NCBI GenBank assembly: GCA_945861465.1
Contig: CAMAVB010000006.1
Location: 1-64,000 of the forward strand
DNA: 64,000 nucleotides
Reading direction: 5' to 3'
DNA from: Candidatus Kuenenia stuttgartensis
GTDB lineage: Bacteria; Planctomycetota; Planctomycetia; Planctomycetales; Planctomycetaceae
This document shows positions 6,602 through 48,003 of this stretch, piece after piece. A program made the translations under genes and the position numbers. The notes under the pieces were generated by a model. That model made no database searches. It was not told where the DNA came from and saw only the letters and a list, made by a program, of their open reading frames with translations. The stretch's first letter is position 1. The number at the start of each line of letters is the position of its first letter.

Positions 6602-7353
6602 GTACCTGGCTCCCGCTCGCCCTGTCTCCCGCTTGCCCTGTCTGCTGCATCAGCGGGACAGTGTAGTGGGCCAGCAGCCTGGCGCGAATCGAACGCATGG
6701 ACGGGCCTGACAGGGTGGGGGGCAGTCGCGGATTTCGGTAGGTCCTCCTTGCCGAGGAGGACTTCGCGGCCTGCCGCGACCAGCGACCAGACGAGGTGGC
6801 AAGAAGGGCCACGCCGCGACGTGGAGGGGATGTGCGACCCAGGGCGGTTCGCCTTACGGCGAAAGTCCTTTCCGGCAGAAAGGACCTACGAAACACAGTC
6901 CTTTCCGGCAGAAAGGACCTACTGAACGCAGTCCTTTCCGGCAGAAAGGACCTACTTTGACGATCATCCTCGACTGAGCTGTGTGAATCTGTAGCGATTG
7001 TAATGCATACGCCGATTCGATGGACAGAGCCGACTCTGCCGGTCGTAGGGGTCCATTCGCGCCGGATGTAGTGATTTTGACGCCGCTGATCGAAAGACCG
7101 GACGGTAGATCAAGCACAGAACGCGCAATTGTCGAAACCGGAAGTACCGGTACAAGACATTCTCTCGGCAACTTGTGATTTTTGATGCAAGCCATCACAA
7201 ACGGCAATTCGCAATTCGGAAGCATAACCGGCTTCTGCATTGCGGCAGAAATCCAGGTTGCAGGGCTTCGCAAAGATTGACCTGCAAAAAATCTAAGCGC
7301 AGCAGACCCGATTACCCCGAGAGAGACACAACAGGATTTTGGAGAGCAGCAGG
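6602..7353. other. Divergent intergenic region, recJ / efflux operon
   Basis: About 750 bases without a credible gene. It should contain the promoters of recJ (leftward) and of the efflux operon (rightward), though I can assign no -35/-10 pair. It carries a GGTCCTCCTTGCCGAGGAGG hairpin near 6739, whose relative recurs near 45529, and a three-unit hairpin array at 6864-6957, listed separately. The right 370 bases show nothing recognisable. Confidence 0.5.
6864..6957. repeat. Three tandem 33-bp hairpin units
   Basis: Three copies of AGTCCTTTCCGGCAGAAAGG followed by ACCTAC, starting at 6864, 6897 and 6930 (period 33). Each unit folds by itself: GTCCTTTC pairs with GAAAGGAC around a short loop. 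The 6-7 bases between hairpins differ, so the hairpin is the conserved part. Because 33 is a multiple of 3 the array is open in several frames, which creates spurious reading frames. Confidence 0.8.
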
Positions 7354-35041: not shown

Positions 35042-38000
35042 TCATTTCTCACCGGAATCCGACAACACCATCTTCTGTCCACTGATGCTGTAAACGTCAA
35101 AGTCTTTGCCTTCAGTATCGGCCAGCAAGACAAGTTCACCGCCCGTTCCAATTACCGAAAGATCAAATGTGGTCGTGCGGCCCATGCCAGATTCGGAAAC
35201 GTTGAAATCGTCTGCCATTGTGTAAACCAGTCCGGACCGTGACACAACAATGAGGTCTGAATCTTCGGGAATGCCTTTCGCGGTCACAAAGCCAAACTCG
35301 TCCGGATTCGGCAGAAACTTAACGAAACCTAAGTTCTTTGCGTCCAATATCAGGCAACCCTTCGGCATCCACAAGGCCAAATATTTCATGTCTTCTGTAA
35401 ACAATACAGATAAAATTGCCCCAAGCTGGTCCTCACCGGTCATCTGCTTCAATTCACCGGACATCTGCTTCCCATCAACAGGGAACACCTCTCCAGTCGA
35501 TAATTCGCAAAGCGACAATTTACCTTTAGCGTCCAGCATTAGCACGATCTTAAAATCGGGGCTGACAGTACATCCACCGCTCAAAGCGGCCTTGATCGGA
35601 TAGGTCTTCTTTTCCTGCAGCGTGACGGCATCCAGAACTTTCAATGTGGTCTCAGCACCTTGGTTATCAAAAATACAAAGCGAGTTTTCCTTCTCGTGAA
35701 AAAAGACCGAACTGGGTCGCATATCCAGCTTGATGGATGTCATTTTTTCAGAAGAAAACTGCGATTCAGGATCCAGACGGCCAATTTCTTCGCCCATCAA
35801 CAAAATTACGCCACCATCTCGTTCTGCGATGACACGTTCCACTGTCGCCGGAACCCGGACTCGTGCTGTCAACTTCTGATCATTGATCGACCACACATCC
35901 AGGACGCCATTCGTTCGAAGAATGATCGCCGACTTCGGTGACTTCGGTCCTGCCGAAAGGTCAACGTTGACAATACGTCCTACCGGCAGTGTTTCTCCGG
36001 GACCGATCCTGGAAGCGATCATCGGAAATGCGTAGTACCCTCCAACCAGCATCATAGCGACGATGACCAGGTAGAGACTTTTCGCGCCGCCAGGTACGGC
36101 ACCGGCAAGTGATGACGGTGTCAATATGGAAGCCAGACTGACAAACCGCTTTCGCAGTCGCTTCGATCGAATTGATCCCGTACTCTCTCCAAGATCCTTC
36201 AGAGACTGCTCTGCTCCGCGACGGACCATCTCCTCCCGATCTTCCAGCAGCGGAACGATTTGCTCTTCAACGCCTTCCAGCTTCAGCTGTGCGATAGCCC
36301 GCACGGCTTGATAACGCACCTCCGGCAACTGATCACGCATCAATGACAGTAATATCGGCCCCGCCGATGCCTGTCCCAGACGGCCTAACGCAATTACAGC
36401 CTGTAACCGGACCAGCGGATGATCTTCCAACGCTTCTTCCAGGAGATGCACCGACGTCGCGTCGCCGAAATCGCCGAGTGCTTTTGCGCACGCGCTGCGG
36501 ACCATTTCGCTTGGATCCCGCTTCAGCATATCCCGCAGTCTCGGAAGAACACCGTCAGGTTTCAGCACTCCCAACTGCTCAATCGCCTTACGTCGCAGCG
36601 CGGGAGCCTGGTCGTCGAGGAGTCGGCGAAAAACCGGAACGCTGTCCGGGATCTTCAGTTTGCGAAGTGCATCGACCGCCTGCTCGCGAAATGGCGACGA
36701 TTCTCCTTCAATAAAGCGCTGCAGAATCTGCAAAGACCTGTTCGTACCGTTTCTCTGCAGTGCTTCAAGCAGATATTCAACAGTTGTCGCATCGGTCTCC
36801 TGATTCAGCGCTTTGCCGATTACGTCGCCGAGTTTAGGTTCATCAATTCGCGACATCGATTGTGCGGCATTGCGGCGCACGTTCAAGTTGGGGTCAAAGA
36901 TCACCTGCTGCAGTAATTCGACACTTCGCGGACTGTACATCGTTGCCACAGACATCGCTGCCTGCGCCCGTACTGTCGGGTCTTTGTCTTGCAGAGCGTT
37001 GTTAATCCGAGAGATGCCGCGCTTCGCCTGCGTGCGAGCCAGTGCATCCACCGCCGCAACTCGCAGAACTGGTGCTTCGTGCGATGCCAGTTTTTGAAAG
37101 ACCTTCAGTTGCTTGTCGCCGGCAACCCGAGCAAGAAGCGAAACCGCGAATGCGGTCGAGTTAATGTCTGCGCCCCGCAGGATGCCCAGCAGAAATTCTT
37201 CCCATGCCGATTTCTTACCGTCAGCAACTGATTCAACACCTACGGTCACCACGGTTCTCAGGCTGGTTCCACAGAGACCAGCGGCAAACAGTACCGGACG
37301 AGTGGGCTCCAGATCGAGTTTGATGAGTGACTTCAGCGCGGCTTCGACAACGGTCCCGGACTTGTCAGCGAGTAGTTTCAGCAGCAACACGGCAGAGCCC
37401 GAATGCGGGATGCAACCGATCGCCTCGGCAGACGCTTCGCGAACCAGCTTTGCCGGCTTTTGAGAGAATGACGCCAGCGTGGAAAGCGCGCTTGGCGAAT
37501 TTGTGGCACCTAACTCACGAAGCTGTTCGATTATGCGATCGATATTCGTCGATGGTGTTGCCATCAATGCTGACACTCGACTTTTCAACGGCCGAGGCAT
37601 TGTCGCAGGGATCTTTGCTGAATCTTCAACCAGTTTCCGAAATGCATCCTCACGCGCAGCACTCAAACTGGCCATTGCTTTTTCTTGCGCCGCTGCTGTA
37701 AGTGTCTGGGCGGCTTCGATCCCTTCAACTGACTGTTCATCATGCCCCGGCAACACAATATTGGTCACTACGTCTGCGGAGCTGGAATGGTTGACCGTGG
37801 ATGACACATCAGAGCCGAATTTCCCGGTGCCGTTGGTTGTCGCGGTGAAAGCGACAGGTTGACTTGCCGAGCCGGTGAATGCTGGAATCAGCGGCGATGA
37901 TGTGGTGATATCGAACTCCGGAGCCGCCGACTTTCTGCCTGCGTGCTTGGCTGGCGTGTGTGTGCCGTTCGACGGCATCGCTGGCGGATGCTTCACCCGC

Positions 38001-39598
38001 ATTAATGGAGCACTCAAGCCTGGCGTGTTGCCCATCGCCGTGACTGTTTCGCCTGCAGAAATTGGAAACAGATTCTGACCAGACGCAGACGAGTCCTGTT
38101 TCGACTGACCATGGAGTTCTGACGGACGATAACCCTGATCGGAATGCTGTCCGGCAGGTCGAGTCATTTGACCACTCGATAGCATTGAGATTTCGCGAGC
38201 AGACAGCATTCCGCTCACCGACATAATACTCTGTGAATCGTCCGTAGCGAATTCCTGATCGCTCTGATCAACATTGAAGGATCCAGTGTCCTGGTACCCA
38301 GAAACTGAATTGAAGAATTCCTGATCGACAGCACTTCGGACGAATCCCCGGTTTACATCACTTCCGTTGCTGTCATCGGCCAGGTGGACGTCATCTGCAA
38401 GGTGGACGTCATCGGCCAGGCAGACGTCATCCACCAGGCGGACGTCACTTCGGTCATCGTCATCGTCATCGTCATCGAAATTTGCGGTCTCTTGGTATCG
38501 GCCTGCCGTCTGAGACTCCTTCGTGGCAGCAGACACGGCGCGTGTGTTGTACGGGCGACCTGAAGCCGCACCATTGATCGGGGTTGACTGACTTTTCTCG
38601 GCGCTACCCCAACCGAATACACTCGACTCTGACGAGTCTGAAGAATTTGAAACCGTTGCGACAGCGACCAGTGGTAGCGCAGATTTTTGAAGTTGCGGTC
38701 GCGCCTGCTGAGGGAGAATTTCAGGAACCGGCTGTGGCTCAACCGTCACACTGGCGGTAATGTGTTCAGAATCTCTGTCCATGATGGAATCGCGGAACTC
38801 AAATCGCAGCCAGTCTGCTGCAATCTTCAGTTCCGGGTGTTGGTCCGCATCTGATTCGCGGATCAATTGAAAGAAATGACTGCATTTACTGGTCGAGACA
38901 AGTCGCAGGACTTCCAGAATCAGGACGCGCAGAGAACGGCTGCCTGAACATGCAATCAGAATGGGCACCACCGTGTGAGGCTGATGCAACTGGACCAGTG
39001 CCTGAAACGCTGTATGCCTGACGCGCGAAGAACCGTCCTGGAGCCTCGGCAATAGCAAATACGCTGACAACGGATGCCGGATATAACCAAGCGCGACCGC
39101 AGCGGCATTGCGCACGTCTTTGGAGTGGGATCCTGAGACCAGTAATAGCGGAGGCAAAACGGCTGGATCACCCATTCGTCCAAGTGCAGTGATGATCGCG
39201 ATGCGCGCCGAGATTTCGTTACTCGGCAGAGCCGTCAGGCTTTCCATCAACGACACGAGCATCGGATTCGATGTTTTCGGAAGCGCTACTCCTATCGCCT
39301 TCAGCTTAGCCCGGCTTGATTGGATCTCCGCCGCCAGCCGAGACGTCACGTCTTCATGCGCTAATTCAAGGACAAAGCTTTCAAACGCTATTCGAGGATC
39401 AATGGGATGATCGGGCGACATCCCTTCATCCAACGCTGGATCCGATTCCGGCGCAGGACCCGAACCCAACGCTCCAGGACGTGAGACCATCGTCTCGGCA
39501 CCAAACCGGTCACCGCATTGACTGCAGAACTTCGCAACCATCAGGTTGCCGTACCCGCATCCCGAACACGGCTTAGATGTCTGGACTGCTTCCGTCAC
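35042..39598 (-). CDS. Giant zinc-ribbon/HEAT-repeat membrane protein with C-terminal propeller-like domain
   Basis: About 1518 residues from a GTG at 39598 with AGGAAGG five bases upstream; a GTG at 39613 is the alternative. N-terminal zinc ribbon (CSGCGYGN ... FCSQCGDRFG), a first HEAT/PBS-lyase-type block at about 100-270 (MGDPAVLPPLLLVSG), a long low-complexity acidic section with an Asp run and repeated (V/H)LADDVHLADD units at about 375-420, a second HEAT array at about 670-1130 (DPTVRAQAAMSVATM, NVRRNAAQSMSRIDEP, ALEDHPLVRLQAVIALGRLG), one membrane segment at about 1175 (SLYLVIVAMMLVGGYYAF) and about 300 residues resembling a beta-propeller. Probably a scaffold spanning the membrane; partners unknown. 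Confidence 0.85.
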   Translation of the reverse strand: MTEAVQTSKPCSGCGYGNLMVAKFCSQCGDRFGAETMVSRPGALGSGPAPESDPALDEGMSPDHPIDPRIAFESFVLELAHEDVTSRLAAEIQSSRAKLKAIGVALPKTSNPMLVSLMESLTALPSNEISARIAIITALGRMGDPAVLPPLLLVSGSHSKDVRNAAAVALGYIRHPLSAYLLLPRLQDGSSRVRHTAFQALVQLHQPHTVVPILIACSGSRSLRVLILEVLRLVSTSKCSHFFQLIRESDADQHPELKIAADWLRFEFRDSIMDRDSEHITASVTVEPQPVPEILPQQARPQLQKSALPLVAVATVSNSSDSSESSVFGWGSAEKSQSTPINGAASGRPYNTRAVSAATKESQTAGRYQETANFDDDDDDDDRSDVRLVDDVCLADDVHLADDVHLADDSNGSDVNRGFVRSAVDQEFFNSVSGYQDTGSFNVDQSDQEFATDDSQSIMSVSGMLSAREISMLSSGQMTRPAGQHSDQGYRPSELHGQSKQDSSASGQNLFPISAGETVTAMGNTPGLSAPLMRVKHPPAMPSNGTHTPAKHAGRKSAAPEFDITTSSPLIPAFTGSASQPVAFTATTNGTGKFGSDVSSTVNHSSSADVVTNIVLPGHDEQSVEGIEAAQTLTAAAQEKAMASLSAAREDAFRKLVEDSAKIPATMPRPLKSRVSALMATPSTNIDRIIEQLRELGATNSPSALSTLASFSQKPAKLVREASAEAIGCIPHSGSAVLLLKLLADKSGTVVEAALKSLIKLDLEPTRPVLFAAGLCGTSLRTVVTVGVESVADGKKSAWEEFLLGILRGADINSTAFAVSLLARVAGDKQLKVFQKLASHEAPVLRVAAVDALARTQAKRGISRINNALQDKDPTVRAQAAMSVATMYSPRSVELLQQVIFDPNLNVRRNAAQSMSRIDEPKLGDVIGKALNQETDATTVEYLLEALQRNGTNRSLQILQRFIEGESSPFREQAVDALRKLKIPDSVPVFRRLLDDQAPALRRKAIEQLGVLKPDGVLPRLRDMLKRDPSEMVRSACAKALGDFGDATSVHLLEEALEDHPLVRLQAVIALGRLGQASAGPILLSLMRDQLPEVRYQAVRAIAQLKLEGVEEQIVPLLEDREEMVRRGAEQSLKDLGESTGSIRSKRLRKRFVSLASILTPSSLAGAVPGGAKSLYLVIVAMMLVGGYYAFPMIASRIGPGETLPVGRIVNVDLSAGPKSPKSAIILRTNGVLDVWSINDQKLTARVRVPATVERVIAERDGGVILLMGEEIGRLDPESQFSSEKMTSIKLDMRPSSVFFHEKENSLCIFDNQGAETTLKVLDAVTLQEKKTYPIKAALSGGCTVSPDFKIVLMLDAKGKLSLCELSTGEVFPVDGKQMSGELKQMTGEDQLGAILSVLFTEDMKYLALWMPKGCLILDAKNLGFVKFLPNPDEFGFVTAKGIPEDSDLIVVSRSGLVYTMADDFNVSESGMGRTTTFDLSVIGTGGELVLLADTEGKDFDVYSISGQKMVLSDSGEK

Positions 39599-39702
39599 GA
39601 GTGCCTTCCTCACGCGGAATCGCGAAACAATTCATCACCGCTGGGATGGCACGGTTCAATCCAGCGCCAATCTTCGGCAACAAATTTGTTCGACTAATCC
39701 CC

Positions 39703-39790: not shown

Positions 39791-41065
39791 CTAGTTTTCG
39801 AAATTAACCTTGGTATCGGCCGCTGGGTCCGTGATCCAAGTTCCACAAAACACGTCGAATGAGTTGATCTCACAAGGACCAGGAGTGTACCCGTCAGTCC
39901 CAGCGTCCATCCCTGTGGTATTGAACCCGGGATTCAGGTACTTGTCGCCGTTCGAATCGAACAGCGATTTGATGCTGCCGTCCGCCATCAGCAAATTGCA
40001 GCTGCCACGGTGCGTTGCCGCCCAGTCACGGGTGTCCTGCAGTACCAAACCCAAAGTCGAATCTTTAGAATAGTCGGTTTCGTTCGTAGCTGTTACCAAC
40101 TCATCAACAAGGGGATATCTCTTTGGATTGTACGAAGTAACAGACAAGCCGTTCATCGCAGCCTCTTTATCCAGCAATTCGATAGTGGCCGCCGCTGGTC
40201 TCCGCCGGGCAGGGCCATCGTTGGCTGTTTCACAAAGACGAGATCCTGCGATCAGTTGCCCACTATCGTCCAGGGATCCAGTGAACAAACCAGTGTTGAG
40301 TATCGCTTCACTCGCATCGCCTGGACTGGCGTCACCCAGTAGCGGAATCGAGCTCGATGGAACATCAGAACGACTCAGCTGAGTCTGAGTTAAAGGACCA
40401 GTACATGTCGGTGCGTCGTTCGCTGTAATTGTCAAACTTTTGCACCCAATTCCGTTCATTAGCGGAGGATCGGTAGCTACGGGCGCGACCGTCTTCAACG
40501 CCTGACCACGACTCATGAACCAGCTTGAAGCGTAGTTCGCATTTACACCCTTGCGAATCCATTCCTTCATGACTAAGCCACGATCGTTCGTCAAAGCACC
40601 AAAGGCATTCAATGCCGTGACCATCGGGCCCGCACCCTGGCGGCTGTTCAAAGTCCTGGAGTTGCCGCTTGTAAAGTTTGCGTTCGCTAGACCATCATTA
40701 AGCTTCTCATAGCCTTTTGTCTCGTTTGTTGGACAGAGCATGGCACTTGGCAGACCGCCCTTAACCGCCAAGACATTCCCTACCCAGCTGTACAGCGTCG
40801 GGTCACCGTCGCGGATAAAGTCATACTGACCTGAACAGAGCCGTTTGGCCGGATCGCTGTCACTCCATGAGTACAGGGCGAGACCGAATTGGCGCAAATT
40901 ATTCTTGCATTGTGCACTCCTGGCTGCTTCGCGTGCGGCTTGGATTGCCGGGAGAATCAGTGCCATCAGGATTGCGATGATCGCAATTACGACCAGAAGT
41001 TCGATCAAAGTGAACCCCTTACGCCGGGCTTCGACGATCATTCGATTCTTACAAAATGTCTTCAT
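39791..41065 (-). CDS. DUF1559 prepilin-like (type II pseudopilin N-terminus) protein
   Basis: 424 residues from the ATG at 41065, preceded by AAGGAA; a frame to 41119 exists. The N-terminus has a prepilin peptidase site and hydrophobic helix ([20 protein letters not shown]), then the DUF1559 signature [32 protein letters not shown]. Near the C-terminus [19 protein letters not shown] is the usual H-x9-DG motif. Planctomycete genomes carry dozens of these proteins; they are assumed to be surface or pseudopilus-like, with unknown function. A 17-bp tandem array starts 49 bases upstream of the start codon, in the expected promoter/5' UTR. Confidence 0.93.
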
Positions 41066-41113
41066 TTGTGTGTGTTCCTTTTGAAAAACAATACCAAAAT
41101 CCTGGTAATTCGA

Positions 41114-41506
41114 CTGCAATCACACTTGGACTGCAATCGCACCCTTGGACTGCAATCACACTTGGACCGCAATCACACTTGGACCGCAATCACACTTGGA
41201 CCGCAATCACACTCTGACTGCAATCACACTCTGATTGCAATCACACTCTGACTGCAATCACACTTGGACTGCAATCACACTCTGACTGCAATCACACTTG
41301 GACTGCAATCACACTCTGACTGCAATCACACTTGGACTGCAATCACACTTGGACTGCAATCACACTTGGACTGCAATCACACTTGGACTGCAATCACACT
41401 TGGACTGCAATCACACTTGGACTGCAATCACACTTGGACTGCAATCCGCCTTGGGCTGCAATCACACTCTGACTGCAATCCGCCTTGGGCTGCAATCACA
41501 CTTTGA
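41114..41506. repeat. Tandem array, 23 copies of a 17-bp unit
   Basis: Consensus CTGCAATCACACTTGGA, 23 head-to-tail copies, all 17 bases except the second (19). Variants cluster by position: CCGC-starts in copies 4-6, CTCTGA ends in 6-8, 10, 12 and 21, CCGCCTTGGG in copies 20 and 22. Copies 13-19 are identical, which suggests recent expansion. The period is not a multiple of three, so reading frames through it are artefacts. It lies directly upstream of the DUF1559 gene; on that strand the unit reads TCCAAGTGTGATTGCAG. Confidence 0.97.
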
Positions 41507-42236
41507 CTGCAGAATCCCGACCCTTTTTTATGTTTGCATCGACCAATCGCTGTCGTTCGTTCTGGATACCTCTTCTCTTCTCTTCTCTCCTCTTCTCTTC
41601 TTCCTTGCGGACACATTCCTCCCTGCCAACTGAAACCTTTGAAAGCCCAGTGGCTTGCAAAAAACCCCTTATCCAAATTCTGACAGATCGCCGACTGATT
41701 CAGGAACCATCAAACAACCGTGGCAGCGACTTCCGTTCAGCCACGTTTTTCATCAACGCCGCATGGTATTCTTCGCGGTCGTGTTAAGCAATTATTAATT
41801 AGGGAGGCATTGACAAAAGTTTTCCTGAAATTTGTCTTAACTGCTCCTGCACGCTGGCAATCGGTCACTAAGTCGCCTTAAACTGAGGGTTTTCACCTAT
41901 TTGAGCTGGGGATTTACACCCAAGCGTCTGTCTGTTCACAGCTGTTCTTCTGTGCGGCAAGGTGCTCCCCGCAGGTATCTGCAGGTCGATTTCCCGCATC
42001 GAACGCTCCGTCAAGATATGATTTTCGGGTCCAAATTATCAGCCGGAACGCAGTGTCCGGCTCTAACCGTGGGCCAACGCCCAGCGGCTGATAAACACAA
42101 CCCGAAGTTGATGGTTTGAAAGAGCACCCTCTAGCGGCGTGTCATTTTAATACCAACCCGAAGCACCAACCATGCCGAAATGGCTGAATTCCTGGCTGCC
42201 GCTTTGCGTTGACATGACCATGAGCCATAAAAACCA

Positions 42237-42366
42237 CTAAGGCGAGCGGCAGGATAGAACTTACCATCCGCAATTTGTACGACGGACTTCCAGTCCGTCG
42301 AGTAGCACCATGCGACGGACTGGAAGTCCGTCGTACCAGTAAATTCATTTCTGCCGCTCGCCTTAG
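42237..42366. repeat. Nested palindromic element, family R1, copy B
   Basis: 130 bases, same orientation as copy C and nearly identical to it. Terminal repeats CTAAGGCGAGCGGCAG / CTGCCGCTCGCCTTAG; inner palindromes ACGGACTTCCAGTCCGTCGA and CGACGGACTGGAAGTCCGTC. Its right CTTAG end runs straight into another palindrome (42377-42475). Confidence 0.92.
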
Positions 42367-42376
42367 AGGCTATCCG

Positions 42377-42475
42377 AAAAGTCGTGGTTCGTTCCGCGAA
42401 CCGACGTCTTGATATGAGAAATGCCATAATTGGCAGCGTTTGAAATGCGATGGTTCGCGGAGCGTACCACGACTA
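42377..42475. repeat. Inverted repeat with CGTGGT/ACCACG arms
   Basis: Left arm GTCGTGGTTCGTTCCGCGAA (from about 42377) and right arm GGTTCGCGGAGCGTACCACG (ending near 42471) pair with few mismatches around about 55 bases. Flanking GGCTATCCG and TATCCGG extend the symmetry. Single copy in the window. Confidence 0.65.
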
Positions 42476-43079
42476 TCCGGTTCTCGGATTGCCTCTAAAT
42501 CAACATACCGCTAGCGACTTGCGCCTTAAGGTATTCGATTTTCGGGACTGAACTCCGCGACATGAAATTTAAGTCGGCGAACGACGGGGAATCGCGGAGT
42601 GGGTATTTTGAGTTCAATATGTCGCGGAAAATGGCTTCAGCGTAAGAACAAACTGCCATCAACTACTGTGCCGTGACAGTCGGAAATTGACTGCAAAGCT
42701 GTTGCAGACAGTAAGTTGTCGCGAAAAGTTCGCATTGCTTTCAAATCGGAGTCAACAATTCGTCAGATGTGTATTCAGCAGACCCGTGGTGATCCATCAA
42801 TGACGCGAAAACGGCAAAGTCTACCATTAGGTTCCGGAAATTTTTAATAAATTGACAGAAAAACAATCGAAATACCCAAGAATTCTGTCGCAATCGGATT
42901 GCAACGGTCTACGGGTTTAGCCTAAGTCGTGGAAACGGCGGAAGAGAATCGCAGGCTGCGGACGATTTACAATTCACGGTGGTCTGCTCGAACATTTCCC
43001 GACAAAGTCTGAGAGGGCGAAAGCCTGCGGCACTGTGCGTATGTGCGGATCCGGATGTTGATATGTGCGAATACGTCAC

Positions 43080-43227: not shown

Positions 43228-43375
43228 GTAGGCCGGACCGAGCAAACCCAATGAAAGCCGGAGCGGCGTCCGCCAGTCAAATCCAGATCGACGCGACAGG
43301 GTGTCACGACGAGGAATCCGGGTTTGCGCTGTTCCGGCATCGGCGGCGGATTTGATCCGGCCTACACCTACGGCA
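43228..43375. repeat. GGCCGGA-type inverted repeat
   Basis: Arms GTAGGCCGGACCGAGCAAAC and, inverted from the right, GTAGGCCGGATCAAATCCGC with an internal GGGTTTGCGCTGTTCCGGC. Related to the TAGGCCGGACCAGGCG element at 12253. Confidence 0.5.
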
Positions 43376-47771: not shown

Positions 47772-47880
47772 CTTAGGACGGTTCGAGAAATGATTGACCG
47801 CATCCTCCTCTCCCCTGGCAAGGGGAGAGGGCAGTGTGAGGGTATAAGAAGAGACAGTTATTTATCGAGCGGTCCTTAGG
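47772..47880. repeat. Palindromic mobile-like element, family R3, copy B
   Basis: Inverted relative to copy A at 4739. Ends TTAGGACGGTTCGAGAAATG and, inverted, CTAAGGACCGCTCGATAAAT. It abuts R1 copy C so closely that both share the CCTTAGG at 47874-47880. Confidence 0.85.
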
Positions 47881-48003
47881 CGAGCGGCAGGATAGAACTT
47901 ACCATCCGCAATTTGTACGACGGACTTCCAGTCCGCCGAGTAGCACCATGCGACGGACTGGAAGTCCGTCGTACCAGTAAATTCATTTCTGCCGCTCGCC
48001 TTA
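47874..48003. repeat. Nested palindromic element, family R1, copy C
   Basis: 130 bases, nearly identical to copy B (one visible change, CCGCCG for CCGTCG in the inner palindrome). Terminal repeats CTTAGGCGAGCGGCAG / CTGCCGCTCGCCTTAA. Confidence 0.92.

What the first reader, a model, noticed from the sequence alone, without database searches (positions are those of the whole stretch)
41114..41506. 23-copy 17-bp tandem array directly upstream of a prepilin-like gene
The array begins 49 bases from the start codon of the DUF1559 gene, so it lies in the promoter/5' UTR. Units are 17 bp (1.6 helical turns), not coding, with position-specific variants and a homogenised block of seven identical copies, which implies copy-number change by slippage or unequal exchange. 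That is the layout of a phase-variable or titratable switch: repeat number could set expression of a surface protein, or the unit could be a repeated binding site.
Basis: partly seen in the sequence, partly recalled or inferred. Interest (0 to 1): 0.62.

Follow-up and report, generated by a model that had tools for sequence, protein, structure and literature searches.

The report
17-bp repeat array in gene leader
A planctomycete bacterium carries 23 copies of a 17-letter DNA repeat between a predicted phosphate-starvation control site and a pilin-like gene; the repeat is real and, as far as could be searched, unique to this species, but nothing shows that it works as a switch, and the more informative find is the phosphate-type control site beside it.

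Summary
The array is real: 41112-41511, 23.4 copies of 17 bp, 46 bp upstream of the start codon (41065) of a DUF1559 prepilin-like gene. It is non-coding in the gene's direction. It was found nowhere else in its 8.2-Mb genome, in 39 relatives, or in a scan of about 85,000 species. Several units look recently duplicated, including seven identical copies in a row. The gene has orthologs, upstream of the same HEAT-repeat gene in the three congeners checked. None of the ortholog upstream regions examined carries the array. Instead they share 11-bp-spaced TTMAY direct repeats, the layout of PhoB/SphR Pho boxes: 43 pairs at spacing 11, against 0-2 at neighbouring spacings. The same motif precedes phoU-phoB in this genome and a phosphate transporter in a relative. 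In this genome a Pho-box-like pair survives at 41777-41798, beyond the array. The array therefore probably sits inside the mRNA leader of a phosphate-regulated gene, not in its promoter. The sense RNA would fold into a self-contained rod; predicted access to the ribosome site does not change from 0 to 23 copies. The unit is not a dispersed binding site. Phase variation remains untested. Best reading: a lineage-specific minisatellite in a Pho-controlled leader, probably with little effect on expression.

The parts
41112..41511 (-). 17-bp tandem array, 23.4 copies; sense-strand unit CAAGTGTGATTGCAGTC = 7-nt spacer + 10-nt near-palindrome GATTGCAGTC
   Evidence: TRF, unit listing
41318..41436 (-). 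homogenised block of seven identical units
41437..41504 (-). duplicated 34-bp dimer (CAAGGCGGATTGCAGTC paired with a ...GCAGCC unit, twice)
39791..41065 (-). DUF1559 (PF07596) prepilin-like gene with N-terminal methylation motif (PF07963), 424 aa
   Evidence: Pfam scan; orthologs in 38 of 170 family genomes searched, own genome included
35042..39613 (-). HEAT-repeat protein downstream; the pair DUF1559-HEAT is conserved in three congeners
   Evidence: tblastn synteny
41777..41798 (-). pair of 11-bp-spaced Pho-type boxes TTAATAATTGC TTAACACGACC
   Evidence: scores 15.1 against a 95th percentile of 9.9 in shuffles, 0 of 100 shuffles as high; coordinates
41763..41768 (-). possible -10 hexamer TACCAT (TANNNT form), 19 bp from the first T of the last box; inferred only
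   Evidence: the sigma-70 consensus scan found nothing above threshold
41570..41601 (-). pentanucleotide AGAAG run, 6.4 copies, in the same leader
   Evidence: TRF
41066..41111 (-). 46-bp stretch between array and start codon, with AAAGGA ribosome site and CACACAC
   Evidence: sequence

Best explanation
The array is a lineage-specific, recently expanded minisatellite that lies in the long 5' leader of a DUF1559 prepilin-like gene whose transcription is predicted to be set by a PhoB-type response regulator bound at direct repeats beyond the array (41777-41798). Units multiply by slippage or unequal exchange, helped by the 10-nt near-palindrome in each unit, which lets neighbouring units pair. 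In the mRNA the array would fold on itself into a rod of stacked 10-bp helices that leaves the ribosome site about as accessible as without it, so it is most likely tolerated spacer DNA with little or only modest effect on expression. Shown: the array, its uniqueness, its place between the Pho-type site and the start codon, the conserved Pho-type boxes in relatives. Inferred: that transcription starts beyond the array, that phosphate starvation induces the gene, and that copy number matters little.
For: Array and unit structure. Absent from other species and from the rest of the genome. Orthologs of the same locus lack it. Pho-type boxes: 43 pairs at spacing 11 in 31 ortholog upstream regions, 15 triples at period 11, against 1 pair in 22 paralog upstream regions; same motif 58 bp before phoU-phoB in this genome, before a PhoU-like/PHO4 phosphate transporter pair in G005 and before a secreted lamin-tail-domain protein in this genome. 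Own pair scores above all 100 shuffles. Without the 400-bp array the last box would stand at about -322, inside the range seen in relatives. Ribosome-site access unchanged by copy number. Sense RNA -199 kcal/mol, antisense -103.
Against: The transcription start is not known; the own Pho-type site is a single pair, weaker than in close relatives, and no consensus -10/-35 was found. 'Little effect' is the absence of evidence for an effect; long structured leaders can change mRNA stability, which was not modelled. The array is the only one of its kind in 10% of the genome sampled, so its place in a leader could be more than accident.
Confidence: 0.55

Rival explanations
1. Copy-number tuner (contingency locus): gain or loss of units changes transcript level, mRNA stability or translation of the prepilin-like gene step by step, as the 7-bp repeats do for hmw1A of Haemophilus influenzae.
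For: Surface-type protein, array of similar copy number close to the start codon, runs of identical units, strong sense-strand RNA fold. Known precedent with 20-24 non-coding repeats between promoter regions and gene (PMC8262952).
Against: Predicted ribosome-site access does not depend on copy number. Half of the units carry point differences, which slows slippage. Orthologs have no such array, so it is not a conserved device. No data on copy-number variation.
Confidence: 0.2
2. The array has cut the gene off from the old Pho-type promoter, and a new start site lies in the 46 bp between array and ATG or within the array.
For: The Pho-type site is 722 bp from the start codon, farther than in most relatives, and is reduced to one pair where close relatives have several.
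Against: No promoter-like pair was found at the threshold used in 40950-42100 on either strand; without the array the distance is ordinary.
Confidence: 0.15
3. Array of binding sites for a dimeric regulator at the near-palindrome GATTGCAGTC, acting cooperatively or by titration.
For: Each unit holds a 10-bp dyad, and substitutions are fewer in the 10-nt dyad (6) than in the 7-nt spacer (19).
Against: 17 bp is 1.6 turns, so neighbouring sites face different sides. Outside the array, 17 matches with up to 2 mismatches against 7 for the reversed control and about 15 expected. Absent from paralog upstream regions apart from one weak match and from orthologs. The unit differences are few events inherited by duplication.
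Confidence: 0.07
4. Assembly artefact: copy number or the array itself made by misjoined reads.
For: Draft genome of 474 contigs.
Against: Units differ in a position-specific way and the longest identical block is 119 bp, short enough for common reads; a wrong copy number is possible, a false array is not likely.
Confidence: 0.03

Closest known systems
hmw1A/hmw2A heptanucleotide repeats of Haemophilus influenzae (PMC8262952)
   Same: Non-coding head-to-tail repeats, about 20-24 copies, upstream of a surface-protein gene; copy number can change.
   Different: There the unit is a perfect 7-bp simple repeat and copy number is shown to change transcript level; here the unit is 17 bp, many units differ, and no variation or effect is shown.
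TAACTGA direct repeats upstream of start codons in Beggiatoaceae and others (PMC4679880)
   Same: Non-coding direct repeats just upstream of start codons, proposed to act on the mRNA.
   Different: Those are one heptamer at 169 places in a genome; this 17-mer is at a single place.
Pho boxes of PhoB (E. coli) and SphR (cyanobacteria) (PMC1906773, PMC2648988)
   Same: Two or more direct repeats with 11-bp period, TTAAC/TTCAY core close to cyanobacterial CTTAACCT, before phosphate genes.
   Different: Here found before a DUF1559 prepilin-like gene in planctomycetes; binding was not tested. This concerns the site beside the array, not the array.
Bacterial minisatellites / VNTR loci
   Same: Tandem unit of more than 10 bp with homogenised and divergent units.
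   Different: No second isolate, so variability is not shown.

Membership tests
Minisatellite (tandem array, unit 10-100 bp) | Head-to-tail copies of a unit above 9 bp | tested here: met
Minisatellite (tandem array, unit 10-100 bp) | Signs of local duplication of units | tested here: met
   seven identical units in a row, p = 0.019 by shuffling order; duplicated 34-bp dimer
Phase-variable (contingency) locus | Copy number differs between cells or strains | not testable with these tools
   no reads or second isolate of the species held
Phase-variable (contingency) locus | Copy number changes expression | not testable with these tools
   only a folding proxy: ribosome-site access unchanged for 0-23 copies
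Repeated regulator-binding site | Site recurs upstream of other target genes | tested here: not met
Pho box (PhoB/SphR type), for 41777-41798 | Direct repeats of period 11 bp upstream of the gene | tested here: met
   relatives: 43 pairs at spacing 11 against 0-2 at neighbouring spacings; own pair
Pho box (PhoB/SphR type), for 41777-41798 | Same motif upstream of phosphate genes | tested here: met
   phoU-phoB in own genome; PhoU-like/PHO4 transporter in G005
Pho box (PhoB/SphR type), for 41777-41798 | Bound by the regulator; gene induced by phosphate starvation | not testable with these tools
   needs experiment

The most novel reading that the evidence does not exclude
The array is a copy-number tuner placed in the leader of a phosphate-starvation-induced prepilin gene, so that random unit gain and loss sets the height of a regulated response; this would be a contingency locus in a free-living, large-genome planctomycete, working through RNA rod length rather than reading frame or promoter spacing.
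Probability: 0.12. Interest if true: 0.6.

Novelty: new member of a known kind. Interest (0 to 1): 0.3.

Why it matters
The array by itself is an ordinary minisatellite in an unusual place. What may matter more is what its study brought out: one DUF1559 prepilin-like ortholog group, with a partner HEAT-repeat protein in the genus, carries Pho-type boxes upstream across the family. DUF1559 proteins are numerous in planctomycetes (59 domain matches in this genome) and mostly without known function, so a predicted phosphate-starvation trigger gives one of them a directly testable role. If copy number of the array did change the response, it would be a contingency locus in a lineage where, to my knowledge, none has been described.

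Tried and rejected
Array as coding sequence: stops in all frames on the gene strand. Array as a dispersed regulatory site: no excess outside the array, and one weak match in paralog upstream regions. Array as conserved device: absent from orthologs; the only DNA hit in a relative (G005:C261, 36 bp, 86%) lies at the start of what reads as an unrelated coding sequence and was treated as chance. Origin of the unit from the ancestral leader: best matches no better than shuffles. Anti-start pairing of GUGUG in each unit with CACACAC before the ATG: seen in one minimum-energy fold but not copy-number dependent and not above permuted arrays. RNA fold as evidence of selection: z = -20 against shuffles is misleading for a tandem array; against arrays with permuted unit columns 11 of 300 fold as well. 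Known RNA family: none in the window. Promoter and terminator consensus scans: nothing. Literature searches for Pho boxes or phosphate starvation together with planctomycete pseudopilins found nothing relevant.

Full report
Observation. Tandem Repeats Finder reports 41112-41511, period 17, 23.4 copies, score 600. Listing the units shows 23 units and a degenerate end. On the gene strand the consensus unit is CAAGTGTGATTGCAGTC. Variants: CAAG or AGAG at the start, three units with GCGGTC, one with GCAATC, one with a 2-bp insertion, and a 34-bp dimer repeated twice at the far end. Seven units at 41318-41436 are identical; a run that long arises in 1.9% of random orders. The 17-mer matches 20 times in the window, all in the array, against 0.27 expected. 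The start codon is at 41065, so 46 bp separate array and gene.

Rarity. A 28-base piece with up to 3 mismatches is found in the own genome only in this array. The array region gave one short chance-like hit in 39 relatives. Two exact patterns for the array gave no hit in about 85,000 species, and the first of them none in viral contigs; the tool may leave out the window's own genome. In 800 kb of the own genome no other non-coding array with as many copies of a unit of 10 bp or more was seen. It is thus a single, species-level feature as far as could be searched.

Gene and relatives. The gene encodes 424 aa with an N-terminal methylation motif and DUF1559. Good matches at E <= 1e-80 exist in 38 of 170 genomes of the family, one per genome, own genome included. 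In the three congeners with full-length orthologs (G003, G005, G017) the HEAT-repeat gene follows the DUF1559 gene as it does here, which supports orthology. Their upstream regions contain no 17-bp array; G003 has an unrelated array of three 115-bp units.

What the relatives do have. The upstream regions of 31 loci are rich in TTMAY words spaced exactly 11 bp apart: 43 pairs at spacing 11, 0-2 at spacings 6-10 and 12-17, and 15 triples. One upstream set of 22 DUF1559 paralogs from the own genome has 1 pair. The G003 pairs include repeats copied within its 115-bp array, so the 43 are not all independent. Direct repeats with 11-bp period are the known layout of PhoB and SphR sites (PMC2648988; PMC1906773), and the cyanobacterial box is CTTAACCT. 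The same pattern precedes a PhoU-like/PHO4 phosphate transporter gene pair in G005 and a secreted lamin-tail-domain protein in the own genome. In the own genome the pst locus on contig C24 holds genes for a sensor kinase, PstS-type protein, ABC ATPase, PhoU and an OmpR/PhoB-type regulator, with TTAACCATTCATTAATC 58 bp before phoU. Calling these sites Pho boxes is an inference from spacing, core and gene context; binding was not tested.

Where the array sits. In the own genome the best such site upstream of the DUF1559 gene is TTAATAATTGCTTAACACGACC at 41777-41798, above all 100 shuffles (coordinates). The array lies between it and the start codon. Without the array the last box would be about 322 bp from the ATG; in relatives the nearest cluster is commonly 160-420 bp away. 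A TANNNT hexamer stands 19 bp after the first T of the last box, near the distance described for E. coli (PMC1906773), but the consensus scan found no full promoter, so the start site is inferred. The simplest reading is that the array is transcribed as part of the leader.

Does it do something? Each unit carries the near-palindrome GATTGCAGTC, so any two units can pair. The sense RNA of the array folds to -199 kcal/mol, the antisense to -103. Dinucleotide shuffles overstate this (z = -20); against arrays with permuted unit columns 11 of 300 are as stable, so the signal is weak. Predicted access to the ribosome site stays at 0.40-0.42 from 0 to 23 copies. The unit does not recur as a dispersed site: 17 matches outside the array against 7 for the reversed control and about 15 expected from composition-free counting. 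I found no support for occlusion of translation or for a repeated binding site. Effects on mRNA stability were not modelled.

Verdict. A real, rare, lineage-specific minisatellite in the probable leader of a Pho-controlled prepilin-like gene. The switch idea is possible but untested; known precedents such as the hmw1A repeats (PMC8262952) show that it can happen. I rate a passive or nearly passive array as most likely.

Noticed in passing
window 42234-42369 and 47875-48003: About 130-bp palindromic (REP/MITE-like) element with core GTACGACGGACTTCCAGTCCGTCG; about 40 copies at 92-100% identity in the own genome.
   Followed up: partly
window 42374-42480: A second palindromic repeat, similar DNA on contigs C138 and C309.
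   Followed up: no
window 43228-43368: A stretch 96% identical to contig C47; nature unknown.
   Followed up: no
window 6864-6956: 33-bp unit AGTCCTTTCCGGCAGAAAGGACC..., 2.8 copies; the same unit recurs in tandem in L166 and upstream of the DUF1559 gene of L105.
   Followed up: no
window 41570-41601: Pentanucleotide run (AGAAG on the gene strand, 6.4 copies) in the same leader, itself prone to slippage.
   Followed up: no
L059 6508-6850 (G003): The G003 ortholog has three 115-bp tandem units upstream, each carrying a triple Pho-type box, so the control site itself is multiplied there.
   Followed up: partly
L126 (G177 contig C3) and L127 (G052): Triple Pho-type boxes also precede other DUF1559 genes, one of them directly and one through an upstream small gene.
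   Followed up: no
L179 9971-9990 (G000 contig C24, about 26970): Pho-type pair TTAACCATTCATTAATC before phoU-phoB, suggesting autoregulation of the Pho system in this planctomycete.
   Followed up: partly
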